Positions 1 through 16,336 of a stretch of DNA of 51,236 nucleotides are shown here, one piece after another. The notes below the pieces were generated by a model that did no database searches, was not told the DNA's origin, and saw only the letters and a list, made by a program, of their open reading frames with translations. Made by a program: the position numbers and the translations under genes. The DNA is from Prevotella sp. (GTDB lineage: Bacteria > Bacteroidota > Bacteroidia > Bacteroidales > Bacteroidaceae). Each line of letters opens with the position of its first letter. Positions within the stretch are counted from its first letter, which is position 1. Location of the stretch: positions 1 to 51,236 of the forward strand of contig JAFPZD010000202.1 in assembly GCA_017417465.1 (NCBI GenBank), given 5' to 3'.

Positions 1-100
1 AGAATCACTGAACTCGAAAATCAAGGGCTTCAGAGCACAGGTACATGGAGTAGCGGATGTCCCATTCTTCATGTATCGTTTGTGCACTATATTCGGATAG
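1..100 (+). pseudogene. 3' end of an ISL3-like transposase
   Basis: The second forward frame is open from the window edge to a TAG at 98-100 and reads as a typical C-terminus of an ISL3-type DDE transposase. The stretch SKIKGFRAQVHGVADVPFF matches the usual family ending (SFNxKIKxFRAxxxGVxDxxFFLFRL) as I remember it. Only about 32 codons are visible, so whether the transposase is intact lies outside the window. It ends about 30 bases before a frame that appears to have lost its start, which suggests the element landed in or next to that gene. Family call is from memory of the motif, not from a search. Confidence 0.6.
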
Positions 101-280
101 TTGTCACAGGGTGGTCATCCACGGAAGAATTGAACAGCGCCCAATTATTCTTTCTTCGCTTACCAATCTTCACCTCTATTTTGGAAGGAAAGCTATGACT
201 TAATCCTAAGAATTTGCAAAGATTGCGGGGACAACAATATTTTTATTGTAGAAGATGAGAGGTGTGAACCTTTTCCTGAA

Positions 281-958
281 ATGGCGTTCAAAATAAGACT
301 ACCGGTGGAATGTTCGTGGGATAACATTTCTCATGGCGGTATTATTTCAGATGTACTTTTCAACATGTTCAATAATAATTACTATGTCTTTGGAGACAGT
401 GGCTTTTGGGGGAAATGGTGCGACTATGATAATGACTACATTGATTATGAAGCTTTTACTTTTGCATCTCCGATGTCGTCAGTCACGGCTTACAAGAATT
501 ATTTCTCTATCTCAAAACAAGAATTTAAGGGCCGAAGCTCCGTTCCAGGAAATTTGAGAGTTGGGTTTTGGAATAATATCAAATGGGAAAATGCACCTCA
601 AATGATATATTTCTGTTTTGGCAAAAAAAGGACTGATTCTTTTAGAAACTTTTTGATGTCAGCGATTAATAATACTATTTGTACTAAAGGACAGAAAGCA
701 AAAAAAGAGACCGTCATGACAGATTGCAACACCTCATGTTTTTATATTGAGTATGACATCAATAACAGCACGGTAGTCAGGGAAATAGGAACAGATGAAA
801 ACAATAAAGTTGTCACAAAAGGACCGTATAAAAATAATCTGGGATTTTGGATTGACAACGACCTGACACTTCAAGAGTATAAGGAAAGATTTGACATACA
901 CTCTATAGGAAAAGAAACATTTGACAAATTGTGGGAAAGTCCTATGAGTCTTATATAA
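281..958 (+). CDS. Hypothetical protein, probably 5'-truncated by the adjacent IS
   Basis: 225 residues from the first ATG. The same frame stays open upstream to 134 and reads like normal protein (YDLILRICKDCGDNNIFIVE), but has no ATG, GTG or TTG start, so the original gene probably began further left and was cut by the insertion sequence at 1-100. The protein is soluble-looking, rich in Asn, Asp, Phe and Trp, with no signal peptide or membrane segment. I do not recognise a family. Its size, AT-rich composition and position beside other small immunity-like genes suggest a polymorphic-toxin immunity protein, but this is inference. It may no longer be expressed from its own start. Confidence 0.55.
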   Translation: MAFKIRLPVECSWDNISHGGIISDVLFNMFNNNYYVFGDSGFWGKWCDYDNDYIDYEAFTFASPMSSVTAYKNYFSISKQEFKGRSSVPGNLRVGFWNNIKWENAPQMIYFCFGKKRTDSFRNFLMSAINNTICTKGQKAKKETVMTDCNTSCFYIEYDINNSTVVREIGTDENNKVVTKGPYKNNLGFWIDNDLTLQEYKERFDIHSIGKETFDKLWESPMSLI

Positions 959-977
959 AACATCCGAAAATCACGGG

Positions 978-1095
978 GTTTTTGATTCTGTCTGCAATAC
1001 GATGGATATTTTTCCGTTAATAATATGAGAACGAGAACTGTTTGTTTGGAATTGGACGCTGGGCCTCACCAATTATCACATGTTAGTGGCCTTCC
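978..1095. repeat. Two dispersed repeat segments shared with 4414-4481 and 6326-6374
   Basis: The gap 959-1202 holds no gene but is built from two pieces found elsewhere in the window. The part at 978-1044 (starting GGTTTTTGATTCTG) matches 4414-4481, both including CCGTTA followed by TTAATATGAG or AATATGAG. The part at 1046-1095 (TTGGAATTGGACGC) matches 6326-6374. A short third echo of GTTTTTGATTCT lies near 4548. The pieces are diverged, so they look like old mobile-element or gene debris rather than active elements. Confidence 0.6.
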
Positions 1096-1202
1096 CTACT
1101 CAATCGTCTGTAAACTAAAGAAATCATGACAGAATTAAAAACCTCTTACCATGATTCCACGGAATTTAGCTCCATATACCGGATTTTAAAAATATAATAA
1201 GT

Positions 1203-1688
1203 ATGAACAAATTAAGATTAAAGGATAATTCCGATTATGAAATCATAAAGAGTTGGTGCCTGACAATATATGATTATTTGATGTCCATAGATTCTGCCTA
1301 TACAAGTATTGTATATCACGAATATGGCTTTATGAGTATTATACGCAAAGCTGATAAAACCCGCAACTTGAAATTGATTAAAGCCTTATATAAAGAAACC
1401 AATTTGTATATCCGAGAAGATTTGCTTACTTCAAAGGAAATGACAGAATTGAATCAATTGTTAAAAGAGAAGTTCGGTCACAACATTGCAGATGAGATTG
1501 ACCGAGAGACTGCTCTTATAGAGAAAATCATCAAGCGAGGGAACATACGCAATGACAGAGAATTTGAAATGGTGAAGCGGCGTGAAGAAGAAATATACGC
1601 CGATGAAAGCCAAAACGAGTATGCAGAAACCCTTCGAAAGTTGATGGGCGATTATGAATGTCCTCAGCTGTCCGTTCGGTCGGATTAA
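1203..1688 (+). CDS. Small hypothetical protein, possible immunity protein
   Basis: 161 residues, mostly helical by eye, highly charged toward the C-terminus (repeated Arg/Glu between residues 100 and 135), with no signal peptide or membrane segment, so cytoplasmic. The A/T-rich leader before the ATG has no clear Shine-Dalgarno, as is usual in Bacteroidales. No family recognised with confidence; the context with two other small immunity-like genes suggests a role against a toxin. The last five codons and the stop lie inside a perfect 30-base palindrome (1672-1701), so the present C-terminus (LSVRSD) may come from that element rather than from the ancestral gene. Confidence 0.6.
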   Translation: MNKLRLKDNSDYEIIKSWCLTIYDYLMSIDSAYTSIVYHEYGFMSIIRKADKTRNLKLIKALYKETNLYIREDLLTSKEMTELNQLLKEKFGHNIADEIDRETALIEKIIKRGNIRNDREFEMVKRREEEIYADESQNEYAETLRKLMGDYECPQLSVRSD

Positions 1689-1701
1689 TCCGACCGAACG
1701 G
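1672..1701. repeat. Perfect 30-base palindrome, left boundary of gene cassette
   Basis: Arms CCGTTCGGTCGGATT and its exact complement with no spacer. It contains the stop codon of the preceding gene and is followed by GTAAAGAAAAG, not a T run, so it is not a canonical terminator. A related copy lies at 2973-3006, and the two enclose a two-gene unit. Confidence 0.8.
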
Positions 1702-1726
1702 GTAAAGAAAAGAGCAGTTTTATAAA

Positions 1727-2473
1727 ATGATTGTATTATTAGATTATATAGGTAAAAGAAAGATAAAGCTTTCTGCGCAAAAAGTAAGTGAATATGCTTT
1801 TCGCACAGAAGTCAAGGTTGTATTACCATGGTGTCAGTTGAAGACAGACCTCAATATCAGCCATGAGGAGTTAGAGACCACGGAACAGGCATTACGTTCG
1901 CTATTGGAAAAGTGTTTAAGAGAAGAAGAAGGGAAAACTAAATTGTTTCTTGCTGACGGTTCTCTTGCCGTCGACATTGCTTTGTCCTTCACAGGTTCTC
2001 TGGTATTACATTTCCATATAGCAGATGAAATATGGGAATGTCTGTTCGACTTGAATTCAGATGTGACTTGCCTTCAAGAGATTCTTGACCATATATGTGC
2101 CTTGAAAAAACAAAGTTTTAGGACACAGCAGGAAGTATTTCCAGATTATTATAATTCCCTGGTGTATGCTCTCAGTACTGAAAATGTACACGAGGATTAT
2201 TCAAATATTGTATTTGAATGTCAGGATGATTTGGGCAAGATAAATGTAGCGTATCATTTTCAAGCTTGGAATGACGAGCTAAAAGAATACAGAAATGGTT
2301 TTAATTCCCTTGTTAAAAATGGCGTATCCTTTAAGTTCGTTCCTTTAAGTGAATTTATAAGTTTGAGCTTTGAAAGGAAAGCCAATGACGATTCTTTTGT
2401 GCTAACAGGAGAAATGGAAGAACATAGCAGGAACTCTTGCATATTAAAGATAAAATCTGATGTTAAATTATGA
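1727..2473 (+). CDS. Putative immunity protein with two WapI-immunity-like halves
   Basis: 248 residues, no signal peptide, cytoplasmic. Residues about 1-125 and 150-245 look like two related beta-rich halves; each has a strand-rich stretch with a loop of the type 'F L ... L ... LxLxFEF/LHFHI', which recalls the fold seen in WapI-family immunity proteins. This resemblance is weak and from memory. The gene starts 26 bases after the palindrome at 1672-1701 and overlaps the next gene by four bases (ATGA), so the two are co-translated. Composition is AT-rich compared with the GC-rich core genes after 3000, which fits horizontal gain. Confidence 0.55.
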   Translation: MIVLLDYIGKRKIKLSAQKVSEYAFRTEVKVVLPWCQLKTDLNISHEELETTEQALRSLLEKCLREEEGKTKLFLADGSLAVDIALSFTGSLVLHFHIADEIWECLFDLNSDVTCLQEILDHICALKKQSFRTQQEVFPDYYNSLVYALSTENVHEDYSNIVFECQDDLGKINVAYHFQAWNDELKEYRNGFNSLVKNGVSFKFVPLSEFISLSFERKANDDSFVLTGEMEEHSRNSCILKIKSDVKL

Positions 2474-2955
2474 AAAGAGTGATAATAAAGAAAGGGAACA
2501 TCTTCAGCGTTGTTATTGAAAACTCTTACAAAGTGTATCTACAGTACGTAGCTGATGACATGACTCAATTGAACAGCAGGGTTGTCCGTGTATTCAAACA
2601 GCATTACTCTTTAAAAGAGAATCCAAGTATGGATGAAATAGTTAAAGACGAAATGGATTTCTATGCTCATACTATGCTTCGCTTGGCTGTTTGGGACGAT
2701 GTATTTATAAAAGTCGGTACACATAAAGACATCGGTGATGCACAAAACTTAATGTTCCGACAAACAGGGGACATTGACCTTTCCAAAATAACTAGGTCAT
2801 ATAAATGGTATATCTGGAAAATCAACAAGCCAATGATTTTTATTGGTCAGTTAACAGAACAATACAAAGATTATGAGCTAGGATCTATTTTTCCATATAA
2901 ATATATTATGGACAGGATAAAAATTGGAAAGTATTTGCATAAGACAGTTGAATAA
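2470..2955 (+). CDS. Putative immunity protein, Imm26-like
   Basis: 161 residues, cytoplasmic. It begins with a 'kKGNIFSVxIxxxYKVYLQYV' type strand pattern and continues with the segment DEMDFYAHTMLRLAVWDD and a Trp-rich YKWYIWKIN, a pattern I associate with Imm26-like immunity proteins of Bacteroidales polymorphic toxin systems; a profile search would settle it. The start overlaps the stop of the upstream gene by four bases, so the pair forms one translational unit. The stop is followed after only 17 bases by the second palindrome. No toxin gene is adjacent, so it would be an orphan (acquired) immunity gene. Confidence 0.55.
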   Translation: MKRVIIKKGNIFSVVIENSYKVYLQYVADDMTQLNSRVVRVFKQHYSLKENPSMDEIVKDEMDFYAHTMLRLAVWDDVFIKVGTHKDIGDAQNLMFRQTGDIDLSKITRSYKWYIWKINKPMIFIGQLTEQYKDYELGSIFPYKYIMDRIKIGKYLHKTVE

Positions 2956-2972
2956 TCAATGGACCCGAATCC

Positions 2973-3006
2973 CCGTTCGGTTGGATTTGTAAATCCGACT
3001 GAACGG
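2973..3006. repeat. Near-perfect palindrome, right boundary of gene cassette
   Basis: Arms CCGTTCGGTTGGATTT and AAATCCGACTGAACGG around a two-base centre, with two mismatches between the arms. It is clearly related to 1672-1701 (shared CCGTTCGGTYGGATT). The base after it begins the remnant of a permease gene, and base composition changes sharply at this point. Confidence 0.75.
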
Positions 3007-3007
3007 A

Positions 3008-3106
3008 GTGCTGACGTGGACCCATGCCGTGGCCGTCGTCCTCGTCTTCATCGGCGTGTCGCTGGTCACGAAGTCCAAGAGCCGGAAGGACATTGAGGCT
3101 CAATAA
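3008..3106 (+). pseudogene. C-terminal remnant of a DMT/EamA family permease
   Basis: The forward frame through 3008-3106 reads as a last membrane helix and charged tail (AVAVVLVFIGVSLVTKSKSR, then a stop at 3104-3106). A helix ending 'GV.LV' followed by a basic tail is the usual end of EamA/DMT exporters. Nothing of the other nine helices is present to the left; the AT-rich cassette begins at the palindrome directly before it. The remnant has GC-rich codon use like the core genes, so it belongs to the host chromosome and marks the insertion or deletion point. Confidence 0.6.
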
Positions 3107-3158
3107 TCATGCTACCGGGCATTACCGTGAGACGCCCTCCGCGGCAACCCCGCAAAAG

Positions 3159-3198
3159 AAAACTGCTCAGCTTCCCAATCGGGAGTCTGAGCAGTTTT
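3159..3198 (-). terminator. Rho-independent terminator of the outer-membrane protein gene
   Basis: A 12-base perfect stem (AAAACTGCTCAG with its complement) with a further TCCC/GGGA pairing inside the loop. On the minus strand it is followed by TTTTCTTTT. It lies 18 bases after the stop of the minus-strand gene ending at 3216. Confidence 0.8.
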
Positions 3199-3215
3199 GT
3201 TATCTGTCAATCGCC

Positions 3216-3758
3216 TTAGAAGTTGTAGTACAGACCGAAGGTCAGGTCAGCACCGCTGAGGTTAAGGCCAAACTTACTGATATTGTTGTCGTCGCCATCA
3301 GGGTTGTACTGGTCCCAGCCGATGAAACCGACGTGAGAGACAAAGCTCAACTTATCGGTCAGGTTCACAGCCACACCGGGCTTGAAGCCCACTGCAAGCT
3401 CCGTCCAGTCAGCATCAGAGGCGCTGATGAAGTCGACACCACCGTCAACGAAAAGGTTCACCTTGCCCAGGTTGGCAAACGTGTAACGGGCATAGGGAGC
3501 AAAGACGAAAGCGCTCTCGCTGACACCGTTGACACCTTTGAACTTGTCGCTCTCATAACCAATCACTGTACCAACGGCCCACTCATCACTGATGCTATAG
3601 CCAATCTCGGGCATGATCTTAAAGACTGTCTCGTTCTTGTCACCGGCCAGCTTCTGGCTGTTCCAAGCCTCAAAAGCAAAGCTACCACCAAGATAAACCT
3701 GTGCGTTCATGCTCACTGCGACGAATGCAGCTGCGATTGTCATCAAAATCTTTTTCAT
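3216..3758 (-). CDS. Small outer-membrane beta-barrel protein
   Basis: 180 residues. Residues 1-19 (MKKILMTIAAAFVAVSMNA) form a signal peptide cut before QVYLGG. The rest alternates polar and hydrophobic residues in about eight strands with short turns, many aromatic girdle residues, and ends in LTFGLYYNF, the terminal Phe signature recognised by the BAM machinery. This is the OmpX/opacity or 'porin family' barrel size class found in many Bacteroidales. No OmpA peptidoglycan-binding domain is present. Function is not deducible beyond an outer-membrane barrel. It is monocistronic, with a TACCTTTG promoter about 90 bases upstream and its own terminator. Confidence 0.8.
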   Translation of the reverse strand: MKKILMTIAAAFVAVSMNAQVYLGGSFAFEAWNSQKLAGDKNETVFKIMPEIGYSISDEWAVGTVIGYESDKFKGVNGVSESAFVFAPYARYTFANLGKVNLFVDGGVDFISASDADWTELAVGFKPGVAVNLTDKLSFVSHVGFIGWDQYNPDGDDNNISKFGLNLSGADLTFGLYYNF

Positions 3759-3847
3759 TTTGTCTTACTCTATTTTTTTAAAATTAGACATTGCCACTAT
3801 TATATATTATATTGTGGCGTTAACTATTTGGTTTCTTAAAACCGCTG

Positions 3848-3855
3848 CAAAGGTA
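3848..3855 (-). promoter_or_regulatory. -7 element (TACCTTTG) of the barrel protein gene
   Basis: Minus-strand TACCTTTG followed by CAGCGG, the Bacteroidetes housekeeping -7 box. It gives a leader of roughly 80 bases before the start at 3758. A clear -33 TTTG at the usual distance is not obvious. Confidence 0.65.
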
Positions 3856-4024
3856 CGCCAAAGTTTGGAAACCGCATAACTTTATACAAGTTTCTTGCAT
3901 TTTCCGGCTATTTTCTTGATTTAGCTTGCTTATGTGGCCTAATTATATAATTTTGTATAATTAATAAGGATGATTCGCCTCTTTTTTAGTAAACGTGCAA
4001 CAACAGTATAAAAAAAACAGACAC

Positions 4025-4063
4025 AAAGAGCCGCAGCCGGAGATGTTCCGGCTGCGGTTCTTT
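4025..4063 (-). terminator. Terminator after the dockerin fragment
   Basis: Long GC-rich stem, AAAGAGCCGCAGCCGGA paired with TCCGGCTGCGGTTCTTT, followed on the minus strand by a T-rich run (TGTTTTTTTT after a short spacer). It sits just after the stop of the dockerin fragment and is probably the original terminator of that gene. Confidence 0.75.
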
Positions 4064-4084
4064 GGTTAACGGATCGTGACGGGC

Positions 4085-4393
4085 TTATTCGCCTACTGCG
4101 GACTCGGTTGCCTCGCCCTGTGCGCCGGCCATGATGTTGGTAATGGCAATGATGTCGCCAGTACCCACTTCACCGTCGCCGTTGATGTCGCACTGCTCAA
4201 GGGTGAGCGAAGCATCGGTCGAGGCCATGAAGTTGGTGATGGCAATGATGTCGCCAATACCCACCTGGCCGTCGCTGTTGACGTCGCCCTCGATAGCGTC
4301 GGCAATGTCCTTAGGCAGGAACTTCACGGCATGGAGCACCACGTCGGCGCCGCTTCCTGATGTGCCGTCGCCGTCGAAGCTGGTGTTAACCAC
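4085..4393 (-). pseudogene. Dockerin-type C-terminal gene fragment
   Basis: About 100 codons ending in two type I dockerin-like EF-hand repeats (GDVNSDGQVGIGDIIAITNF and DINGDGEVGTGDIIAITNIM). The segment GADVVLHAVKFLP just before them is identical to the one near residue 950 of the secreted protein at 9771-12890, so this is the tail of a paralogue. No signal peptide or upstream body remains: the frame can be followed to about 4453 (through RIKNLSLRFNRVV) and then meets a stop inside a dispersed repeat. The apparent start is a GTG with no leader. I read it as a truncated remnant that kept its terminator. Confidence 0.7.
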
Positions 4394-4413
4394 ACGGTTG
4401 AATCGGAGGGACA

Positions 4414-4481
4414 GGTTTTTGATTCTGCCTACACTATAATGAATAATTATCCGTTATTAATATGAGGACGGGAGCTGTTTA
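4414..4481. repeat. Second copy of dispersed repeat (see 978-1044)
   Basis: Begins GGTTTTTGATTCTG and ends GGAGCTGTTT; aligns along about 67 bases with 978-1044. It joins the dockerin fragment on its left. A third short match, GTTTTTGATTCT preceded by GGAATCAAAGGGAACA, lies at 4536-4560, and forms an imperfect inverted repeat with itself (GAATCAAA ... TTTGATTC), as the end of an IS or MITE might. Confidence 0.55.
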
Positions 4482-4710
4482 TTCTTTTATGCCAAGAATC
4501 TGAAGAGTGCAGAGCGGTACAGGCATCTATCATGGAATCAAAGGGAACAGTTTTTGATTCTACTGTAATAAGTGAAATGTAAACTTAAATAAGCGATGAG
4601 TCCATAAAAAAACGGCAAAACGTATCGGAATGTGCAGATTCATTTGTAGTTTTGAGGCTTGGCCTTGAAAGTAGGCTGCATGTAGGAAATACAAAATAAA
4701 TCGTAATTTG

Positions 4711-4742
4711 TTTGGTGTTTCGCTCGATAAGCAGTACCTTTG
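4711..4742 (+). promoter_or_regulatory. Orphan consensus promoter
   Basis: TTTG at 4711-4714, a 20-base spacer and TACCTTTG at 4735-4742: a full match to the Bacteroidetes promoter pattern. No open reading frame follows for more than 1.6 kb on this strand, so it probably drives an RNA or is left over from a lost gene. Confidence 0.65.
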
Positions 4743-4748
4743 CACCCG

Positions 4749-4875
4749 AATACTTATAAGTTGAAGCAACCGCTGCTTTCTTGAAAGTCTCTCGAATTAG
4801 CCATTCACCAAGACATTCGCAAGAAAAGACGACAGCCTGCTCACGGCTCCAACGGAGTCGTGAGCATTTGTATTA
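4749..4875 (+). ncRNA. Candidate small RNA or leader
   Basis: A transcript from the promoter at 4711-4742 would start near 4749 and run into a strong hairpin at about 4838-4867 (TGCTCACGGCTCC and GGAGTCGTGAGCA around AAC, one G-T pair), followed by TTTGTATT. The tail is less T-rich than a textbook terminator. There is no reading frame of note inside. It could be a small RNA of ~125 nt or the attenuator leader of a deleted gene. No known RNA family recognised with confidence. Confidence 0.4.
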
Positions 4876-5320
4876 ATCACTGGGACGGTTTTTGCGTCCT
4901 TGCGGTAGTAAGCGAGCAGGGGCTCGAGCGCTGTCAATACTTCTTTAATGAGTACGAGTTCTCTTCTGCATTCGCTGCTCCATTAAGTAACAGAATGAAT
5001 AATAGTTAATTGTTCAACCCTTCATTTTAGGTGTATGTAGCTATGTGTTAGAGAGATACGGTGAAGGGTTGGTTTGGACGCCTTGCCACTCGATAATCGC
5101 TTGTTTCTGACACACGTAAGTCATAGGTTTACGACATGGAAACGGCATAGTTGCGACATGAAACTGCTCTAATCAAGGCAAACGTGCAATGCTTTTCGTC
5201 GCCATGAAATCATACCCAGCCTGCGGTGTTTTATGACTCAGTGCTAGAGGCAAAATTTGCGTGACTTGGAGTCTGATTTTTTCTGCGATTGTATTGTACT
5301 GAAATACAGGACAATATGTT
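4876..5320. other. Intergenic stretch without a gene
   Basis: No supported reading frame. It contains a degenerate copy of the REP-like loop (TTGCGTCCTTGCGGTAGTAAG, near 4890-4910; compare 13012-13055) and an inverted pair, CAACCCTTCA near 5009 and TGAAGGGTTG near 5063, which can fold into a long-looped hairpin. Otherwise nothing recognisable. Confidence 0.5.
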
Positions 5321-5408
5321 GCTGACGTTCGTCAGCAGATTTGCCGACCTTCGTCAGCAGATTTGCCGACCTTCGTCAGCAGATTTGCTGACCTTCGTCA
5401 GCAGATGA
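5321..5408. repeat. Four tandem copies of a 22-base repeat
   Basis: Units at 5321-5342, 5343-5364, 5365-5386 and 5387-5408, each close to GCCGACCTTCGTCAGCAGATTT. The first unit carries a perfect small stem, CTGACG-TT-CGTCAG. There is no spacer between units, so this is a tandem array, not a CRISPR. Confidence 0.85.
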
Positions 5409-5435
5409 TAGTATTGCTATTGGGGGCGCAATTCC

Positions 5436-6025
5436 GCCAGAGTAGGGGCAGGCCCATTGCCGAGCAAGCTCGCCTACCCATAGCCTTTATGCCAGCCCGA
5501 TGCCCCCCAAAGGGGCAGTGTCGCCGCGAATGTAGAAATTACACTGGCCCTGACGGGCCATCGGGCTGGCACAAAGGCTACGGGTAGGCGAGCTTGCTCG
5601 GGAATGGGCCTGCCCCTACTTGTGGCGGCATCGCCTGTCCCTTGACACTGGCCCTGACGGGCCAACGGGCTGGCACAAAGGCTACGGGTAGGCGAGCTTG
5701 CTCGGGAATGGGCCTGCCCCTACACTGGCGGCCTGCCCCTACTTGCGGCGGCATCGTCTGTTCCGCCGATGCGTTGTTGCGGATAGGCGCTTGCGCCTAG
5801 GATGTTGTTTTTGCTCTTTCTCTTTCTATAAAATTGTTTTTGTTGTTTGTGTTGTCTTAAAAGAATAAGGTGGCGGCATCGCCTGTCCCCTGACACTGGC
5901 CCTGACGGGCCATCGGGCTGGCACGGGGCCTGCCCCTACACTGGCGGAATTGCCCCTACACTGACGACCTGCCCCTACAGGCGGAATTGCCCGTACACTG
6001 GCGGAATTGCCCGTAGATAGTGACA
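5436..6025. repeat. Cluster of GC-rich palindromic repeats
   Basis: The segment from 5440 to 5505 (GGGGCAGGCCCATTGCCGAG ... GCCAGCCCGATG) recurs in inverted orientation at about 5566-5620 and again at 5667-5725. Each copy includes the small palindrome CGAGCTTGCTCG and the pair CCCTGACGGGCC. From 5923 to 6020 a shorter unit around CTGGCGGAATTGCCC is repeated four or five times. The open frames here are all in repeat sequence and do not look coding. The stretch 6025-6130 holds nothing recognisable. Confidence 0.75.
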
Positions 6026-6187
6026 TTTTTAATTGGTGGTACAAGAGCAGTGTTGGCAAGATGGCTATGGTCACACTGGCCTGACGGACCAACAAATCAT
6101 TCACCGCAACTAGCTTTCAATGAGATATTTACGTAAGAAGTGAAGGGTTTTGGAATACAGATCATCTTCGGTATTAGCTGCTCATTA

Positions 6188-6345
6188 TCAGCGTTTATGG
6201 CGATGGAAGAGATCGCCGAGGCCGTTGAAGTCGCACTTCATGATGAGTCCGATGCCCTGCGTGTTGAGCGAAGAGCGGGTGAAGTAGCGGTCGCAAATCA
6301 CGGGGACATTGTCCGTGATGTTATGTTGGAATTGGACGCCGGCCC
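6188..6345 (-). pseudogene. Unidentified degraded coding remnant
   Basis: The minus strand reads about 50 codons of normal-looking protein (VICDRYFTRSSLNTQGIGLI, then MKCDFNGLGDLFHRHKR and a stop at 6188-6190) with GC-rich codon use. Upstream the frame breaks within the repeat shared with 1046-1095. I do not recognise the family. It is probably the 3' end of a lost gene. Confidence 0.35.
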
Positions 6346-6374
6346 GCGCCAATTATCATGAGTTAGTGGTCTTC
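6326..6374. repeat. Second copy of dispersed repeat (see 1046-1095)
   Basis: TTGGAATTGGACGCCGGCCC through AGTTAGTGGTCTTCGC aligns with 1046-1095 with scattered substitutions. Confidence 0.6.
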
Positions 6375-6415
6375 GCGCTATTGTGAAAAAACCGTAAAAA
6401 GCGGAGTGGCAATGC

Positions 6416-6444
6416 TTTGCTAACCATTTTATTTTATACCTTTG
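6416..6444 (+). promoter_or_regulatory. Promoter of the 981-residue secreted protein
   Basis: TTTG at 6416-6419 and TACCTTTG at 6437-6444, spacer 17 bases (slightly short). The leader to the ATG at 6492 is about 40 bases and A-rich. Confidence 0.65.
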
Positions 6445-6491
6445 CAGCGCAAATGCAAATCATATCAATAAATTACTAAAACAAACAAATT

Positions 6492-9437
6492 ATGAGGTTT
6501 TTTACTAAGAGTGTGCTTCTTGCCCTTCTTATCATGATGGGCGGAGCAAAAGTAAGTGCTCTGGAGACTTATGATTTCCAAGAGCTTTGTATGAAACTTG
6601 GCAAGGGTGGCCCCTGGGCCGTTAACGACGGAGGCGACGCCGGCTTTACCCTTGGAACAGAGGAAGCGCCAGTTGTGATGCACTATCTTGGCGACTACAC
6701 CGATCAGGGCTTCACCTGGAACCAGCGTTTCGCCTATGAGTATGTTGACGGTCGTGGCAAGTTCACGATGCGCAACAAGAGTAACAAGAAGGACAAGAAC
6801 TGCGGCATGTTCTCGTGGGACTACGCCCACAACTTCTCAATTCTCGGCCTGAAGGACGGCGACAAGGTGACCATCACCATTCCTACTGGCACCGTAACGT
6901 TCGTATCGGAGACAGCAGAGGGTGTCAGTGAGGGTGACGCCGTTACATCGGACCAGGCCTACACCATCACAACCACCGAGGAGTCGACACGCCTTGACAT
7001 CCAGATGGCTTCTGCCACGCTGATTGCCAAAATCGTCATTGAGCCTTACGGTGTGGAGACCATACCAACAATCAAGCTTAACAAGGAGACGCTGGCCCTC
7101 ATCCCTGGTGCCGCAGCGAAGCTCACCGCCTCTGTTGACCCCGCAGGAATCGCCACACAATGGAAGAGTGACAACGAGGCCGTGGCAACCATAGCCGACG
7201 ACGGCACCGTGACCGCCATTGCAGCCGGCACTGCCACTATCACGAACTCATGGGCTTCGGAGGTCAGCGACGCTACCGCCGAGGATGCCTGTGTCGTCAC
7301 CGTGGCCGATGTAGACCTGAGCAAGTATAAGATTGTAAGAGCCTACGACTTCACTACGATGGGCGACGTGACATTGGAATTACAAGAAGATGCTGCCGGT
7401 GCCATCTGGAACGATGCGAACTCAAAGCCCAACGACGTGTTCTTCTGCACCAACGAGGGTCTTGAGCAGATTGCCGTGCAGGCTGCCGTGTCAAGCAACA
7501 AGGGTTGGTCGATTGTCGACGGTCAGGGTCTGTTCCTTGCCTCTGGTGCTGGCCGTTGCGCTGCCGTGGCAGACATCAAGACCGGCCAGATTGTGGAGTT
7601 CATTTATACTGGTGATGGCTTCTACACCCGTAGCGACGACGACGGCATCGAGAAGACCGCCCTCAACGAGAGTGTTGGCCGCGCCATCTATCAGGCCGAC
7701 GAGGATGGCATGATTGGCTTCGAGCTTGTCAAGGGCAATGCCGTTAAGCAAATCAACATCTATGAGTTTGACTACACCAATTATATTGTGAACGCTGACC
7801 TGACAGGTGAGGGCGGCTTCGACGCAACCGGCACTAAAGGCATTGACGGCTCAGGCATCGTGAAGTGCGGCAACAATGCCCAGTTCGACTTCAGCCAGAC
7901 CATCAAAGGACTGCCCGCCGGTAAGTATCTGCTCACCGCACAGGCTGCTTACCGCTACGGCGGAAGCGAAGCTGACGAGGCTGCCGCCATTGCAGCCGGA
8001 ACAGAGACCAAGCTTGCATCACTCTATGCAACCGTCGACGCCAAGACGGTCAGCACGCCCGTCCAGAACCGCTACGACGGCGCATCCGAAACCGACCTTG
8101 CCGGCAGTGGCACAGCCATCGTTAACGATCTGTATGTGCCCAACTCATCTGCTGCTGTCCAGGCCTGGTTCAATGCCGGCAAGTATGTCAACGAAGTGGA
8201 GTTCAACCTGCCTGCTGACGGCGACGTGAAGATTGGCATCGCCAAGACCGCACAGCCTGTGAATGGCGACTACACCGTCATTGGTCCCTGGACCCTGACA
8301 CGTATTGGCGAGGCCGAGGAAGAGCCCGTCGTCGAGGACGGCAGCTACGTGTTCGTGGCTTCCGAGTGGATTGCCGGCGACGCTGGCCGTATCAGCCCCG
8401 ACAATGTTGTGTTCAATGCTGACAACACCATCACCGTGAGCCAGACCGGCACGAACAACGTAGCACTCCTTTTCCGCTCAGAGAACGTCTACACCGTGAA
8501 GGCCGAAAAGCGCTACTTCGTCATCAAGGGTACGGGTCTGTCGACTGCCGAGGGCGACAGCTACCTGTGGTGGCTGAACAACACCAACGACGGCTCGCAG
8601 ATTGAGCCCACCGACATCTACGAGGAGGATGGTCAGACCGTCTTTGCCTGGGACTGCGCTACGATTTCCATCGGCGGACAGCTGGGTCTTTCCGACACCG
8701 AGTTCAAGGATGAAGGCGGCTGGAGCACCACGTTCGGCCTGACGCTGGCCGACCAGGAGGTTCCTGCAGTCATCAGCTACATCGGCTTCGAAGAGGCCGT
8801 TGCCAACCCCGTCGAGGAGTTTGTGTATGAGTTCGTAGCTTCGGAATGGCCCGCAGGCGATCCTGGCCGCATCTCGCCCAACAACGTCGTTGTCGATGAG
8901 GCAGCAAACACTATCACCGTCAATGCTACTGGTGACAACAACGTGGCACTGAACTTCAAGACCGACAAGATCTACTACCTGCCGGAGCCTGTGAAGTACT
9001 TCGTCATTGTGGCCACTGGCCTGAGCACTGAGGAAGGCAAGAGCTACCTGTGGTGGCTTAACGCCAAGAACAACGGCGGACAGGTGCCTCCCACCGACAT
9101 CGTCAGCGGCGAGCAGACAACCTTCGTCTGGGACATCACAGCCGACGACACCTTCGCCAGTGGCTTCAGCGCCGATGGCAAGACCTATCTTGACGGCACG
9201 GGTGCCAGCACCTGGGGCTGGACGACCACCTTCGGTCTGACGCTGGCCGACGCAAACGTTCCTGCCGTCATCAGCTATATTGGCTATGAGACTGAGGACT
9301 CTCCCGTCGTCACTGCCATCAACAGCACGCGCAGCAACACGACCGTGAGCCACGCCATCTACAACCTCGCCGGCCAGCGCGTGATGAATGCCCAGAAGGG
9401 CCTCTACATCATCAACGGCAAGAAGGTGATGTTTTAG
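6492..9437 (+). CDS. Secreted multidomain protein with YDF module and Big_2 domain
   Basis: 981 residues. A signal peptide covers residues 1-23 (MRFFTKSVLLALLIMMGGAK...). Residues 26-186 form a beta-rich 'YDF' module (ETYDF ... NQRFAYE ... FSILGLKDGDKVTIT) that recurs in the proteins at 36073 and 37194. Residues 192-272 are a bacterial Ig-like Big_2 domain (ATQWKSDNEAVATIADDGTV). Two repeats of about 150 residues follow near 625-775 and 780-945, each with ASEW.AGD.GRISP, SYLWWLN and TTFGLTLAD. The protein ends with YNLAGQRVMNAQKGLYIING, the short C-terminal motif common on secreted Prevotella/Bacteroides proteins. No catalytic domain is visible; surface binding or adhesion is likely but unproven. 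Function unknown. Confidence 0.8.
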   Translation: MRFFTKSVLLALLIMMGGAKVSALETYDFQELCMKLGKGGPWAVNDGGDAGFTLGTEEAPVVMHYLGDYTDQGFTWNQRFAYEYVDGRGKFTMRNKSNKKDKNCGMFSWDYAHNFSILGLKDGDKVTITIPTGTVTFVSETAEGVSEGDAVTSDQAYTITTTEESTRLDIQMASATLIAKIVIEPYGVETIPTIKLNKETLALIPGAAAKLTASVDPAGIATQWKSDNEAVATIADDGTVTAIAAGTATITNSWASEVSDATAEDACVVTVADVDLSKYKIVRAYDFTTMGDVTLELQEDAAGAIWNDANSKPNDVFFCTNEGLEQIAVQAAVSSNKGWSIVDGQGLFLASGAGRCAAVADIKTGQIVEFIYTGDGFYTRSDDDGIEKTALNESVGRAIYQADEDGMIGFELVKGNAVKQINIYEFDYTNYIVNADLTGEGGFDATGTKGIDGSGIVKCGNNAQFDFSQTIKGLPAGKYLLTAQAAYRYGGSEADEAAAIAAGTETKLASLYATVDAKTVSTPVQNRYDGASETDLAGSGTAIVNDLYVPNSSAAVQAWFNAGKYVNEVEFNLPADGDVKIGIAKTAQPVNGDYTVIGPWTLTRIGEAEEEPVVEDGSYVFVASEWIAGDAGRISPDNVVFNADNTITVSQTGTNNVALLFRSENVYTVKAEKRYFVIKGTGLSTAEGDSYLWWLNNTNDGSQIEPTDIYEEDGQTVFAWDCATISIGGQLGLSDTEFKDEGGWSTTFGLTLADQEVPAVISYIGFEEAVANPVEEFVYEFVASEWPAGDPGRISPNNVVVDEAANTITVNATGDNNVALNFKTDKIYYLPEPVKYFVIVATGLSTEEGKSYLWWLNAKNNGGQVPPTDIVSGEQTTFVWDITADDTFASGFSADGKTYLDGTGASTWGWTTTFGLTLADANVPAVISYIGYETEDSPVVTAINSTRSNTTVSHAIYNLAGQRVMNAQKGLYIINGKKVMF

Positions 9438-9551
9438 GAGTAAAGGAGATGAGGAGATGTGGAGGTAAAGTAGAACAGTCCCCCATCCATTGCGCTCCTT
9501 TTGCTAAAAGACAAAAAAGAAACTAAGTAAAGCCGAAAGGCAATAGGCAAG

Positions 9552-9589
9552 AACACGGCACGAGGGATGACCTCTGCCGTGTTTTTTTT
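9552..9589 (+). terminator. Terminator after the 981-residue protein gene
   Basis: Stem AACACGGCA / TGCCGTGTT followed by a run of eight T. It lies about 115 bases after the stop. The intervening sequence (9438-9480) has G-rich 'ggagatgaggagatgtgg' mini-repeats ending in GGAGGTAAAGTAGAACAGTC, a motif that recurs around 45205-45272. Confidence 0.75.
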
Positions 9590-9676
9590 GTGAAGTCCGC
9601 GCCGAGAAGTCTTGGGGTCTGCTCGGAGAAGTCTTCAACCGACTTTTTGGGCTAATCCGAAAAAAGCACCCGAAAA

Positions 9677-9708
9677 TTTGGTGGTGTGGAATAAATGTAG
9701 TAACTTTG
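9677..9708 (+). promoter_or_regulatory. Promoter of the dockerin-bearing secreted protein
   Basis: TTTG at 9677-9680, a 20-base spacer and TAACTTTG at 9701-9708, followed by CAGGC. The leader to 9771 is about 55 bases. Confidence 0.7.
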
Positions 9709-9770
9709 CAGGCAGATAGCGAGAACATAAAACAACACTTCTATTATTAACCAATTAAAACAAAACAGTT

Positions 9771-12700
9771 ATGAACAAAATCCTACGTTTTTCACTCATC
9801 ACCCTGCTGATGATGCTGTGCGGGACGACGTTTGCCCTAGAGAAAACCTTTTCGGCATCCGAGATTAGTGGGGCAGCTACCGAGGCTATTACCATTAATG
9901 GTGTAACCTTCGAGGCTGCAAAGAATACCGGCTCGAATGCTCCGCAATTCGTTGCTAGTGGCCAAGACTTCCGCATCTATGCCAAGGGGACACTATCCGT
10001 CTCTACCACTGGCACTATCACAAAGATGGTCTTTAACATTTCGGCTCAAGGCCTGAAGCGCCTGGCTCCCATCACTGCTTCAACCGGCACTATCGCCGAG
10101 CAAGCTTCAGGTGACGCCATCGTCACCTGGACGGGAGAGGCAGAATCAGTTACTCTCACCGTTGGCGACAAAGCTAACTACGGAACTGACGGAGATAGTA
10201 AGGCTGGGCAGCTTGATTTCTCCAGCGTTACCATCACCTACGACTATAATGGAACCATTGTGGAGAAGGTTGCCACACCCGTCATCAGCCCTGATGGTGG
10301 TGAGTTCGACGAGAGCGTAGAGGTGACGCTAAGCTGCGCCACTGAGGGTGCCACCATTATGTATTGCCTGGCCAACGATTGGGAGGCGTACACTGGGCCC
10401 ATCACGCTGACTGAGACGACCATCGTGAGAGCCTACGCTGTTTGCGACGGCATGGAGAACAGTGAGACCGTAAGTGCAGAGTTCACGAAGAAGGAGCAAG
10501 AGGGCCAGCTGGTAACCTTCGACTTCAACAAGGACTACAAGACGCTGTTCCCAACCATTAAGGGCGAATCAAGCGGTAATTCCAATGCTGGTGACATTAC
10601 CGAGGAAGTGACCGCCACTGTCGGTGACGTTAGCGTCACCGTGTCTCCAGCTACTGGAAACACGCCCAACCGTATCTGGTCGTCAGATCCTCGTCTGCGC
10701 ATGTATTCTGGCACGCTGACGTTTGCGTCAACTGGCGATAACATCACCAAGATTGAATTTACCCAAACCACAAATAAAGCTCGCATTTCCGATGACAACA
10801 CAGCTGAACCTGGAGACCTGACCAAGACCAATCAGCAAAACAACGGCACCGTCACCTGGACTGGTAACTCTAAGAGCGTGGTTATCAACATTGCCGGCAA
10901 CACACAGTACTCAATGGCTGTCGTGACCTTAGGCGAGGTAAAGGAGCAGGTTGCTGCTCCCGTGTTCACCCCCGACGGTGGTGAGTTTACGGACAGCGTC
11001 GACGTGACTCTGACCTGCGCCACTGAGGGCGCCACCATCATGTATTGTGTGGCAAATGATTGGGAGGTGTACACCGAGCCCATCAGACTGAAAGAGACCA
11101 CCGTTCTGGGAGCCTACGCCGTCTGCGACGGTATGGTGGACAGCGAGACCGTACGTGTCACGTTCACCAAGAAAGAAGTGGTGCCCGAGCCTGAAACCAT
11201 TAGCGTAGCTGAGGCTCTTGAAATTATCGACGGCATGGAGGACAAAGCCATCGCAACGGAAGCCAGCCTTATCGAGGGCTACGTTGTCAGCATCAGCGAT
11301 ATTAACACGACAACCTTTGGAAACGCCACTTACGTGATTGCCGACGAGCCAGGTGCCACTGAGAACACGCTGACCGTCTATCGCGGCTTCTACCTCGACA
11401 ATGCGAAGTTCACCGATGCTGATCAGCTTTGCGTTGGCAACAAGGTGGTCGTCAACGGCAAGTTGCAGCGCTACGTTGATAATAGTGGAAAGATGATACC
11501 AGAGGTGTCACAGGGCAACTATCTTGTCTCCATCGAGGTGACTGGCAATGAGCCTGCCGACCAGGAAGTGGCCAGCATTGCTGAGTTCAACGCCCTTGAG
11601 AAAGGCTCAAAGGCCCTGCTGACGCTCAACAACGAGGTCCAGGTGGTGTTCTCGCAGAAGGCTGAAGATGGAAAAGAGTGGGTCATCGTTCAGGACAACC
11701 AAAAGAGCCGCGTGGTATTCTACAACACCGGTCTGTTTGAGAAGGTGCAAGCCAACGACATGCTCACTGGCAGCATCGCTGGTATTCACGAGGTGTACTT
11801 TGGCATGAACGAGTTCACCGCCTACAGCAAGACCACCCTTGCCAACGTCAACGCCGTGGCTGGCAACGCCATCAAGGTTGACGCTCTCGCCAATGTGGCT
11901 GCAGCCTGGGATCCATACAAGATTCTGAAGCTCTGCAAGATTTCAAAGGTTACCTACACCAGCGAAAACAATCATTTCTATGCTACCGACGGCAGTGACA
12001 AGACCCTGGAGATTCGCGACAACTTTAGGGTGGGCTACACCCTGCCCGAGCTGCAGGAAGGCCAGTCGCTGAACATCACTGGTATCGTTGTTCCCTACGT
12101 GGCCAACAACAGCACCGATACGATTTACCAGATTGCGCCCATCTCGCAGGAGGCCATTGAGGTAGTCTATCCTCCCTACTACAAGCAGTTTGCTGAGACC
12201 GAGGTATTCATTCCTACCGCTGAGGCACTGGCCGAGGCTATGACGCCTGAGGCAGCATGGGTAGAATGGGGTGGCACGCGTACCGACAACAAGACGCTGC
12301 ACATCAATCCCTACACCGACGAGGAAGAAGTTCAGAAGAACGCTCCTGGTATTGGTCTGAAGTCTGGCAACAGCGCCAAGTCGTTCTCCGTCAGTATTCA
12401 GGGCGTCGAGGCAGTCTGGGCTTATGGCTCGTCAACAGGCAGTGCCCAGCGCACGCTGCGCGTCACCGCTACCGACGAAAGTGGCCAGAGCGTTACGGCC
12501 CAGGAGACCACAGACGGCCAGACAGCTACTATCAAAGTCAATGGACTGAATCCCCAGTATCGCTATCACGTTGTGTTCTCCGGTCTTGACGGCGACGGTT
12601 CAGAAGGCAAGGGTGCCGACGTGGTGCTCCACGCTGTGAAGTTCCTCCCCATCGCCCCCATCGAGGCTAAGCCTGGCGACGTCAACAGCGATGGTGAGGT

Positions 12701-12890
12701 CGGCATTGGCGACATCGTGGCCATTACGAACGTCATGGCTGGTATCTTCCAAGAGGGTATGGACGAAGAAGCCATCAATGCACTCAAAGCACGCGCCGAT
12801 GTCAATGGCGACGGCAACGTAGGTATTGGCGACATCGTAGCCATCACTAACATCATGGCTGGCATCGAAAGCTCAACTACTGAGCCTTAA
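9771..12890 (+). CDS. Secreted multidomain protein with chitobiase-C-like repeats and dockerin
   Basis: 1039 residues with a signal peptide (1-22). After a first beta domain (about 25-160), residues 166-240 and 393-467 are repeats of the chitobiase/beta-hexosaminidase C-terminal type (PVISPDGGEF ... ATEGATIMYC). Residues 476-590 look like a DUF5689/OB-fold domain (IEGYVVSISDINTTTFGNAT), followed by two further OB-like segments (about 600-690 and 710-810). The end has two dockerin type I-like calcium loops (DVNSDGEVGIGDIVAITNVM, DVNGDGNVGIGDIVAITNIM). No catalytic domain is evident, so it may be a surface-binding or scaffold-attached protein. In Bacteroidales such dockerins occur without a known cellulosome; no cohesin is seen here. 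A truncated paralogue lies at 4085-4393. Confidence 0.8.
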   Translation: MNKILRFSLITLLMMLCGTTFALEKTFSASEISGAATEAITINGVTFEAAKNTGSNAPQFVASGQDFRIYAKGTLSVSTTGTITKMVFNISAQGLKRLAPITASTGTIAEQASGDAIVTWTGEAESVTLTVGDKANYGTDGDSKAGQLDFSSVTITYDYNGTIVEKVATPVISPDGGEFDESVEVTLSCATEGATIMYCLANDWEAYTGPITLTETTIVRAYAVCDGMENSETVSAEFTKKEQEGQLVTFDFNKDYKTLFPTIKGESSGNSNAGDITEEVTATVGDVSVTVSPATGNTPNRIWSSDPRLRMYSGTLTFASTGDNITKIEFTQTTNKARISDDNTAEPGDLTKTNQQNNGTVTWTGNSKSVVINIAGNTQYSMAVVTLGEVKEQVAAPVFTPDGGEFTDSVDVTLTCATEGATIMYCVANDWEVYTEPIRLKETTVLGAYAVCDGMVDSETVRVTFTKKEVVPEPETISVAEALEIIDGMEDKAIATEASLIEGYVVSISDINTTTFGNATYVIADEPGATENTLTVYRGFYLDNAKFTDADQLCVGNKVVVNGKLQRYVDNSGKMIPEVSQGNYLVSIEVTGNEPADQEVASIAEFNALEKGSKALLTLNNEVQVVFSQKAEDGKEWVIVQDNQKSRVVFYNTGLFEKVQANDMLTGSIAGIHEVYFGMNEFTAYSKTTLANVNAVAGNAIKVDALANVAAAWDPYKILKLCKISKVTYTSENNHFYATDGSDKTLEIRDNFRVGYTLPELQEGQSLNITGIVVPYVANNSTDTIYQIAPISQEAIEVVYPPYYKQFAETEVFIPTAEALAEAMTPEAAWVEWGGTRTDNKTLHINPYTDEEEVQKNAPGIGLKSGNSAKSFSVSIQGVEAVWAYGSSTGSAQRTLRVTATDESGQSVTAQETTDGQTATIKVNGLNPQYRYHVVFSGLDGDGSEGKGADVVLHAVKFLPIAPIEAKPGDVNSDGEVGIGDIVAITNVMAGIFQEGMDEEAINALKARADVNGDGNVGIGDIVAITNIMAGIESSTTEP

Positions 12891-12944
12891 GAGGAAGAGC
12901 AGTCCGTCATCAACTAACGTGCTGACGACCTGACACAACTGAAG

Positions 12945-12979
12945 TTCCCGCCGCCCTCAGTTCTTGAGGACGGCGGGAA
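12945..12979 (+). terminator. Terminator after the dockerin protein gene
   Basis: Long stem TTCCCGCCGCCCTCA with TGAGGACGGCGGGAA and loop GTTCT, followed by TTTCTATTCT. Confidence 0.8.
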
Positions 12980-13011
12980 TTTCTATTCTCACCTCGCAAT
13001 GACAAAGCTTT

Positions 13012-13055
13012 AACAACGAATTCTTGCGTCCCTTCGGTAGCAAGAATTCGTTGTT
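13012..13055. repeat. REP-like hairpin, copy 1
   Basis: Perfect 16-base arms AACAACGAATTCTTGC and complement around the loop GTCCCTTCGGTA. The same arms and loop occur at 16185-16228. The flank TTAAGAGGTCGTAGGG on the right of this copy matches, inverted, the flank on the left of the other copy. The stretch 13056-13190 holds nothing else recognisable. Confidence 0.85.
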
Positions 13056-13190
13056 TTAAGAGGTCGTAGGGATTGGAAACTTGAGTGACTATTAACCATT
13101 GGGAATTACGGGACAGATTCCCTAAATGCGTTGCCGCTCACCTCCCAAAGGTTGTATCCATTGCTCTGCCTGCTTTACTCAAGATACATC

Positions 13191-13853
13191 CTATACAATT
13201 AATTGAGATAACAGTTGGATGTGACGGCCTTCCACACGGATGGCGCCTTCCTGCTTCAATTCATTCAGACATCGCAACAGGGAGTATTTCTGAATACCGA
13301 AATGGTCGGCAAGCTCTTGTCTCGACATAGAGAGAAGAACGTCTTTTGATTGTTGCTTTCTACTCTGCTCCATCAGGAAGAGACATACTTTTTCGCGTAC
13401 GCTCATGGAGAGCATGCGCACCTTCTTGGTTAACTGGGAAATGATATTAGAGAGCAACTGAATGTAATTCTGCATCAGCCGCTGGTCGATATGCATCATT
13501 TTCTCAAGGTCTGCTAACGATAGGCGCAAGACATTGGTTGCGGTCATGGCTTCGACGGTCACGGGATAATGGTTGTCAGCAGCAAAGAGAAAGGCAGGAG
13601 CCAACAGTGTGCCAGTCTGATGGGCAGCCATTCGGACAACATTTCCTGACGGACCTGTAACGTATGCCACCATTTCACCGCTGATGATGATGTCGGCAAA
13701 TTGGCAAAAAGAGCCTGCGCTAACCCAAATCTGGCCTTTGTGACAGCGGATTATTCGATAACGAACAGTGTGCATCAAAGCAATGATCTCTGACGCTTCC
13801 AAGTCTCGGAATAACGGGCATTGTTTCAGCCCTTGTAAGGTGTCAATATCCAT
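13191..13853 (-). CDS. Crp/Fnr family transcriptional regulator
   Basis: 220 residues. Residues about 10-125 form the cyclic-nucleotide-binding-like beta roll (GEMVAYVTGPSGNVVRMAAH), joined by the long dimer helix (about 126-150) to a Crp-type winged helix at 155-215 (LLSMSRQELADHFGIQKYSLL is the recognition helix region). There is no Cys cluster as in Fnr for an iron-sulfur centre. It is transcribed away from nrfHA, and the shared intergenic region has a near-perfect dyad, so it very likely controls nrfHA and perhaps itself. Related regulators in Bacteroidetes (HcpR-type) respond to nitrosative stress and control hcp and nrf genes; that this is an HcpR orthologue is inference. Confidence 0.85.
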   Translation of the reverse strand: MDIDTLQGLKQCPLFRDLEASEIIALMHTVRYRIIRCHKGQIWVSAGSFCQFADIIISGEMVAYVTGPSGNVVRMAAHQTGTLLAPAFLFAADNHYPVTVEAMTATNVLRLSLADLEKMMHIDQRLMQNYIQLLSNIISQLTKKVRMLSMSVREKVCLFLMEQSRKQQSKDVLLSMSRQELADHFGIQKYSLLRCLNELKQEGAIRVEGRHIQLLSQLIV

Positions 13854-13861
13854 AGTGAGAG

Positions 13862-13869
13862 CAAAATTA
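13862..13869 (-). promoter_or_regulatory. -7 element of the Crp/Fnr gene
   Basis: Minus-strand TAATTTTG, matching TAnnTTTG, only 8 bases upstream of the ATG, so the transcript would be leaderless or nearly so. Confidence 0.55.
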
Positions 13870-13918
13870 GCACTTTTGGGTGAATAATTCTTAAAATTAA
13901 CAGACTTTATAGGTGATT

Positions 13919-13934
13919 GGTAACAAATGTTACC
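13919..13934. promoter_or_regulatory. Candidate Crp/Fnr operator between regulator and nrfHA
   Basis: GGTAACAAATGTTACC, a dyad GGTAACA-AA-TGTTACC with perfect seven-base arms, the typical size for a Crp/Fnr dimer. Its centre is about 42-44 bases before the inferred nrfH transcript start, the place used by class II activators. Confidence 0.7.
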
Positions 13935-13956
13935 ACTTTATATCCCCATAAATGAT

Positions 13957-13964
13957 TATATTTG
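13957..13964 (+). promoter_or_regulatory. -7 element of nrfHA
   Basis: TATATTTG matches TAnnTTTG. The -33 region is occupied by the operator flank (no TTTG), as expected for an activator-dependent promoter. nrfH starts 24 bases further on. Confidence 0.65.
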
Positions 13965-13988
13965 TCCCCAAAATAGGATATTACACGT

Positions 13989-14597
13989 ATGAACTGGAAA
14001 AAGATATTAACATTCAAAGATCTATTTTCCTATCGCCAAAAGATAGGCCTGCTGGTTGCGGCAGGCGTGGTTTGCGGACTTGGCGGACTGTTTATGTATC
14101 TGCTTCGAGCGCACACCTATTTCGTGGGTGACAATCCATCTGCCTGTGTCAACTGCCACATCATGACACCTTACTATGCTACGTGGAGCCATTCTTCTCA
14201 CGGAAGAGACGCCACATGTAACGATTGCCATGTGCCCCACCAGAACCTTGCACTGAAGTACGGCTTCAAGGCGATGGACGGACTGAAACACACGGCTTAT
14301 TTTGTAACCCATGCCGAGCGACAGGCACCGATGGCCGAGACGCTGACAGGACAGGTAGTGATGGACAACTGCATACGTTGTCACACCCAACTGAATCAGG
14401 AGTTCGTGAAGACAGGTCGCATGGGATATATGCAGCAGCAGGCTCAGGGCGGCAAGGTGTGCTGGGACTGCCATCGCAACGTACCTCATGGCGGTATGAA
14501 CTCGCTGATGGCCACGCCTAACGCTGAAGGGGTGACACCGCTGCCCCCATCGCCGGTACCCGAGTGGCTGCAAAAGGCTTTGAAGATGAAAGATTAA
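13989..14597 (+). CDS. nrfH: Cytochrome c nitrite reductase small subunit NrfH
   Basis: 202 residues, NapC/NirT family. One N-terminal membrane anchor (about 18-39, GLLVAAGVVCGLGGLFMYLL) holds a periplasmic tetrahaem domain. Haem motifs: CVNCH at 53-57, CNDCH at 77-81, CIRCH at 128-132 and CWDCH at 158-162. NrfH takes electrons from menaquinol and passes them to NrfA for six-electron reduction of nitrite to ammonium. It is a little longer than the usual 150-190 residues because of a Pro-rich tail (TPLPPSPVPEW). nrfA starts 17 bases after its stop, and the promoter with operator lies just upstream. Confidence 0.95.
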   Translation: MNWKKILTFKDLFSYRQKIGLLVAAGVVCGLGGLFMYLLRAHTYFVGDNPSACVNCHIMTPYYATWSHSSHGRDATCNDCHVPHQNLALKYGFKAMDGLKHTAYFVTHAERQAPMAETLTGQVVMDNCIRCHTQLNQEFVKTGRMGYMQQQAQGGKVCWDCHRNVPHGGMNSLMATPNAEGVTPLPPSPVPEWLQKALKMKD

Positions 14598-14614
14598 AAA
14601 AAACAAATACTATT

Positions 14615-16147: not shown

Positions 16148-16184
16148 CAAAGAGCTCAAGTTGTCCACCCCTAAGACCTCTTAA

Positions 16185-16228: not shown

Positions 16229-16300
16229 AAAGAGAAAAGCGTGGGAAAGTTCAATACCTAAAAATAATGTGAGGGATGGTTTTTCTGAGCCTTCCCTCTC

Positions 16301-16327: not shown

Positions 16328-16336
16328 CAGCCGACA

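What the first reader, a model, noticed from the sequence alone, without database searches (positions are those of the whole stretch)
1672..3006. Palindrome-bounded two-gene cassette of probable immunity genes
Two overlapping small genes (1727-2473, 2470-2955) that look like polymorphic-toxin immunity proteins lie exactly between two related palindromes (perfect at 1672-1701, near-perfect at 2973-3006). Neither palindrome is followed by T runs, so they are not ordinary terminators. The right one abuts a truncated host permease. Bacteroidales are known to gather orphan immunity genes in acquired interbacterial defence clusters, including recombinase-associated ones with repeated intergenic sequences. 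This could be a small member of such a system with a distinct boundary palindrome.
Basis: partly seen in the sequence, partly recalled or inferred. Interest (0 to 1): 0.76.

Follow-up and report, generated by a model that had tools for sequence, protein, structure and literature searches.

The report
Orphan antidote genes beside dispersed hairpins
A gut-type bacterium carries a few borrowed genes, one of which looks like an antidote to rivals' toxins, and the mirror-image DNA beside them looks like a scattered repeat that also sits beside ordinary genes, so it is probably not a special boundary.

Summary
A perfect 30-nt palindrome (1672-1701) and a related 34-nt one (2973-3006) flank two coupled genes (1727-2473, 2470-2955). 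No T run follows either, and the right one abuts the last 32 codons of a permease.

The immunity reading is supported for 2470-2955: in two other genomes relatives (42-45% identical) lie directly downstream of RHS-type toxins with a GIY-YIG-like end, once as a tandem pair. For 1727-2473 no convincing relative was found, so its role rests on linkage. Both lie in a low-GC stretch (1-3006, 0.35-0.37; 0.53-0.54 beyond 6000) with two more small co-oriented genes and a transposase tail at the contig edge: probably part of an orphan-immunity island.

The special-boundary reading is not supported. The left palindrome lies inside that stretch, not at its edge. The palindrome core occurs in 36 of 284 genus genomes (backwards control 0 in every row shown), in part within a roughly 115-nt hairpin element, and beside unrelated genes. 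Strong hairpins are common in this window: 12, against 0.3 in shuffles. Most likely they act as RNA 3'-end hairpins of repeat origin.

The parts
2..100 (+). C-terminal tail of a transposase, cut by the contig edge
   Evidence: frame read; 78% identical over 32 aa to a Segatella copri transposase, 25 plasmid records match at E up to 1; no Pfam match at E 0.01
281..958 (+). Small low-GC gene (225 aa); its C-terminal part resembles a gene in the G514 cluster
   Evidence: 29% over 77 aa, E 3e-11 in a two-sequence comparison; GC 0.353; no Pfam/NCBIfam family
1203..1688 (+). Small low-GC gene (161 aa) whose stop codon lies inside the left palindrome
   Evidence: 11 of 398 genus genomes match, own included; five aligned relatives end 5-8 residues earlier
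1672..1701 (.). Left palindrome, perfect, 15-bp arms
1727..2473 (+). Gene of unknown family (248 aa), overlapping the next gene by ATGA; possible immunity gene by linkage only
   Evidence: 1 of 201 family genomes (own only); 2 of 398 genus genomes, own plus one marginal hit with a stop inside
2470..2955 (+). Predicted immunity gene against RHS toxins with a GIY-YIG-like C-terminus; orphan within this contig
   Evidence: 5 of 100 relatives' genomes match, own included; toxin next door in G252 and G253; alignment with 34 invariant columns
2973..3006 (+). Right palindrome, fully paired as + strand RNA through two G-U pairs
3008..3106 (+). Last 32 codons of a truncated permease
   Evidence: 66 of 149 genomes match, own included with a second place on contig C268

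Best explanation
The protein of 2470-2955 most likely binds and blocks the GIY-YIG-like nuclease end of RHS toxins delivered by neighbours; homology and position are shown, binding is inferred. No such toxin was recognised in the window's ORF lists, so it would act as an orphan antidote (inferred). Gene 1727-2473 is probably translated together with it (ATGA overlap) and may be a second antidote (weak inference). The palindromes are most likely compact copies of a palindromic repeat dispersed in the genus. In RNA they form hairpins at the 3' ends of 1203-1688 and of the gene pair, where they probably end or protect the transcripts (inferred). They mark where the repeat landed or DNA was rejoined, not a dedicated cassette boundary.
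For: Toxin neighbours: G252 has two tandem relatives right after a 2087-aa RHS protein, G253 one relative after an RHS-type frame. Low GC over 1-3006 with the change at the right palindrome. Four co-oriented genes at GC 0.337-0.364. Core in 36 of 284 genus genomes, up to 45 copies in one, backwards control 0 in the rows shown; 34 of 46 copies lie outside ORFs of 120 aa or more (mechanical ORFs); Tex, amidohydrolase, WYL, esterase, RhuM and symporter genes beside copies. Two full elements fold as one long hairpin, z -11.5 and -9.0, whose outer ends match the window arms. Both right-hand mismatches keep pairing only in + strand RNA. 8 of the 12 strong hairpins of the window lie within 250 nt 3' of a stop codon (my count).
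Against: The own genome holds only these two copies of the arm and one further, shorter core elsewhere, so it is not a high-copy repeat here. The window forms are compact with arms on both sides, whereas most copies have 8-10-bp arms. Two copies around one gene pair stay unexplained by this reading. No T run follows, so termination is not shown. The GIY-YIG match of the G252 toxin is below Pfam's cut-off. 12 of 46 copies fall inside ORFs of 120 aa or more.
Confidence: 0.6

Rival explanations
1. The palindromes are plain 3'-end hairpins that arose without the dispersed repeat and resemble each other by recent duplication.
For: Strong hairpins are common in the window (12 against 0.3), and an identical 38-nt pair lies at 13015-13052 and 16188-16225 around other genes. 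G253 has a 34-nt perfect palindrome of other sequence about 130 nt after its relative's stop codon.
Against: The 15-nt arm equals the outer end of the repeat in G616, G466 and G618 letter for letter.
Confidence: 0.2
2. The two palindromes are the ends of a mobile unit, 1672-3006, that moved as a piece.
For: Related palindromes at both ends in one genome that has no other copy of the arm; truncated permease at the right end.
Against: The left flank is also low-GC island DNA with a small gene ending in the palindrome, not the other part of the permease, so removing the unit would not restore the permease. No empty site was found in the loci looked at: none of 3 stretches around the outer-membrane gene and none of 14 permease loci from other genomes shows both genes.
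Confidence: 0.07
3. The palindromes are recombination sites of a rAID-like or integron-like array of antidote cassettes.
For: Co-oriented low-GC small genes; one palindrome after 1203-1688 and one after the next gene pair; the contig ends before a recombinase could be seen.
Against: No palindrome in the gap 959-1202. The core is absent from 3 of the 4 other genomes with a relative of 2470-2955. Copies elsewhere lie beside unrelated genes.
Confidence: 0.05
4. The junction at 3006 is an assembly error joining two genomes.
For: The draft has 278 contigs and 5.5% contamination, and GC changes at the junction.
Against: A repeat of about 34 nt is short for most assemblers (recalled, not tested).
Confidence: 0.05

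Closest known systems
RHS polymorphic toxin / immunity pairs
   Same: Relatives of 2470-2955 sit directly after RHS proteins with a GIY-YIG-like C-terminus
   Different: No toxin recognised beside it here; no Pfam or NCBIfam model names this immunity family
[quoted passage not shown]
   Same: Small co-oriented genes below 41% GC (criteria read in PMC12247911, section 28 and passages; values)
   Different: No recombinase seen, contig ends; palindrome in 1 of 2 gaps between successive transcription blocks
REP/BIME-type repetitive extragenic palindromes (abstract starts in listings)
   Same: Palindromic, mostly outside ORFs, dispersed, two palindromes in inverted order in the longer elements
   Different: Only two arm copies in this genome; transposase link not tested; compact form here
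Intrinsic terminator
   Same: Strong hairpin at the 3' end of genes
   Different: No T run

Membership tests
Immunity protein of RHS/GIY-YIG toxins | Relatives encoded next to the toxin | tested here: met
   G252 (two copies) and G253; G258 has only a fragment near an RHS-like frame, G205 a relative in a cluster with an RHS protein some 6 kb away
Immunity protein of RHS/GIY-YIG toxins | Protects cells from the toxin | not testable with these tools
   needs an experiment
rAID cluster | Two or more co-directional genes below 41% GC | tested here: met
   four genes, GC 0.337-0.364
rAID cluster | rAID tyrosine recombinase upstream | not testable with these tools
   the contig starts at base 1 inside a transposase gene
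rAID cluster | Conserved intergenic motifs | tested here: inconclusive
   palindrome after 1203-1688 and after 2955, none in 959-1202; published motifs not compared
REP-type repeat | Short dispersed extragenic palindromes | tested here: met
   36 of 284 genus genomes; 34 of 46 copies outside ORFs of 120 aa or more
REP-type repeat | High copy number within the genome | tested here: not met
   two sites in the own genome; one other genome has 45 core copies
REP-type repeat | Linked RAYT transposase | not tested
   no search for it was made
Intrinsic terminator | Hairpin followed by a T run | tested here: not met

The most novel reading that the evidence does not exclude
The compact 15-bp palindromes are active recombination sites by which these bacteria assemble arrays of antidote genes, in the manner of an integron, with the recombinase encoded beyond the contig end.
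Probability: 0.05. Interest if true: 0.65.

Novelty: new member of a known kind. Interest (0 to 1): 0.22.

Why it matters
It adds a protein family without a Pfam or NCBIfam model to the likely antidotes of RHS/GIY-YIG toxins and shows one member as an orphan. It is also a worked case in which two related palindromes around a gene pair need no special boundary function. The roughly 115-nt palindromic repeat of the genus may deserve its own description: three searches of the open-licence library (listings only) showed no paper on it, which is weak evidence that none exists.

Tried and rejected
Without result: Pfam and NCBIfam gave no family above cut-off for the four island genes; PHROGs gave one weak hit for 1203-1688 (E 0.045) and PADLOC none. 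Solved structures gave only matches with E 0.19-0.34 for the 2470-2955 alignment and for 1727-2473. Viral contigs: nothing for 2470-2955, its alignment, 1727-2473 or the palindrome pattern. Plasmids: nothing for 1727-2473 or 2470-2955; phages: nothing for 1727-2473 (2470-2955 was not searched there). ARAGORN found no tRNA in the window. The scan of the species-genome collection for the full palindrome gave one stretch, L058, beside a gene I read by eye as an acyl-CoA synthetase and after a short start that I recall as type I methylase-like. Empty site: in G233, whose outer-membrane protein is 80% identical, no permease match was found near it, nor in the G222 and G232 stretches; none of 14 other permease loci has that gene within its roughly 1.5-kb flanks. 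Paper passages on Bacteroides transcript ends did not settle termination without T runs (listing, passages). One toxin survey held no mention of GIY-YIG or DUF4304 in the text on hand. The second permease place in the own genome was fetched but not studied.

Limits. Neighbour genes of the repeat: 18 loci listed, one neighbour each of 10 scanned, 4 of the 10 without a family. The draft genome is 90.8% complete with 5.5% contamination. Genus and gene names not given by a call are by eye or recall.

Full report
Observation. The palindromes are there. The left one (1672-1701) is perfect with 15-bp arms; the right one (2973-3006) has two DNA mismatches that become G-U pairs in + strand RNA. Genes 1727-2473 and 2470-2955 overlap by ATGA and lie between them. 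No T run follows. The exact arm occurs in the own genome only here (3 matches). Chance does not explain hairpins of this strength (12 in the window, mean 0.3 in 20 shuffles), but the same count shows that strong hairpins are common here.

What the genes are. For 2470-2955, 5 of 100 genomes match, own included. In G252 two tandem copies follow a 2087-aa protein with SpvB, FG-GAP and RHS matches; in G253 one copy follows an RHS-type frame with a GIY-YIG match above cut-off, whereas the G252 GIY-YIG match is below it. The four full-length relatives aligned are 37-45% identical to the window protein, with 34 invariant columns. That is the usual position of an immunity gene (established for polymorphic toxins; recalled). 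In G205 the relative sits in a cluster with an RHS protein some 6 kb away, and in G258 only a fragment lies near an RHS-like frame whose match is below cut-off.

For 1727-2473 nothing convincing was found: own genome only in 201 family genomes, own plus one marginal hit with an internal stop in 398 genus genomes, nothing in plasmids, phages or viral contigs. For 1203-1688, 11 of 398 genomes match, own included. In G514 its relative lies in one cluster with a gene resembling 281-958 (29% over 77 aa) and a DUF4304-like protein just below cut-off; the latter is 55% identical to a protein in the G205 cluster that also holds a relative of 2470-2955. In G502, G548, G122 and G589 the relative of 1203-1688 has neighbours that do not look like a toxin (by eye). 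So the link of 1203-1688 to immunity is suggestive only.

The stretch. GC is 0.35-0.37 over 1-3006, 0.47-0.48 over 3007-5000 and 0.53-0.54 beyond 5000; in finer windows the rise falls at the right palindrome, with later low-GC dips near 3750-4050 and 4350-4800. To the right is the end of a permease (66 of 149 genomes match, own included); to the left the contig ends in a transposase tail. The left palindrome is inside the stretch and holds the stop codon of 1203-1688; five aligned relatives end 5-8 residues earlier. A clean cassette 1672-3006 inserted into the permease is therefore unlikely. I found no empty site: the three stretches around relatives of the next gene lack the permease, and 14 permease loci lack that gene.

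The palindromes elsewhere. CCGTTCGGTYGGATTN0-6AATCCRAC occurs in 4 of 398 genus genomes, own included. The core GTCGGATTN0-6AATCCGAC occurs in 36 of 284, own included, with the backwards control at 0 in the rows shown. The three genomes chosen hold 5, 7 and 4 cores; of the four genomes with relatives of 2470-2955, three hold none and one holds two. I read 47 distinct copies, the window's left one and L058 included: 29 have a second GGATT..AATCC and 26 a GCATT..AATGC within 140 nt. Of 46 copies (L058 left out), 34 lie outside ORFs of 120 aa or more and 12 inside. Two full elements fold as one long hairpin whose ends match the window arms. The compact window form would result if the middle of such a long palindrome were lost; this is inference. 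L058 and G311 (L119) also show compact forms. Of 10 neighbouring proteins scanned, 6 had a family, none an immunity family.

How it most likely works. The protein of 2470-2955 blocks a GIY-YIG-like toxin domain (inferred). The hairpins end or protect the transcripts before them: supported by place, by pairing kept in + strand RNA only, and by 8 of 12 strong hairpins in the window lying within 250 nt 3' of a stop codon (my count); not shown by experiment. An identical 38-nt pair lies around other genes at 13015-13052 and 16188-16225.

Against this reading. The repeat is rare in this genome, the compact form is unusual, and two copies around one gene pair remain a coincidence. A recombination role is not excluded because the contig ends; I rate it at 0.05.

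Verdict. The finding is real and its immunity part is probably right for one gene; its boundary part is better explained by a dispersed repeat acting as 3'-end hairpins. New member of a known kind, low interest.

Noticed in passing
window 13015-13052 and 16188-16225: Identical 38-nt hairpins in inverted orientation (by the flanks, by eye) around a Crp-like gene and genes read by eye as nrfH/nrfA.
   Followed up: partly
window 977-1094, 4414-4483, 6326-6374: A segment of 977-1094 recurs in two halves further right (81% and 84% identical); in the own genome these are the only three places.
   Followed up: partly
window 5319-5406 and 5434-5956: Tandem 22-nt units and long inverted and direct repeats in a GC-rich stretch.
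   Followed up: no
L034 1444-1576 (genome G618): Two identical copies of the palindrome core with their flanks in tandem, 57 nt apart.
   Followed up: no
L076 (genome G205) 1574-17028: RHS protein followed by a run of small genes and partial RHS-like frames, like an array of toxin tips and antidotes.
   Followed up: no
genome G460: 45 copies of the palindrome core, far more than in the other genomes shown.
   Followed up: no
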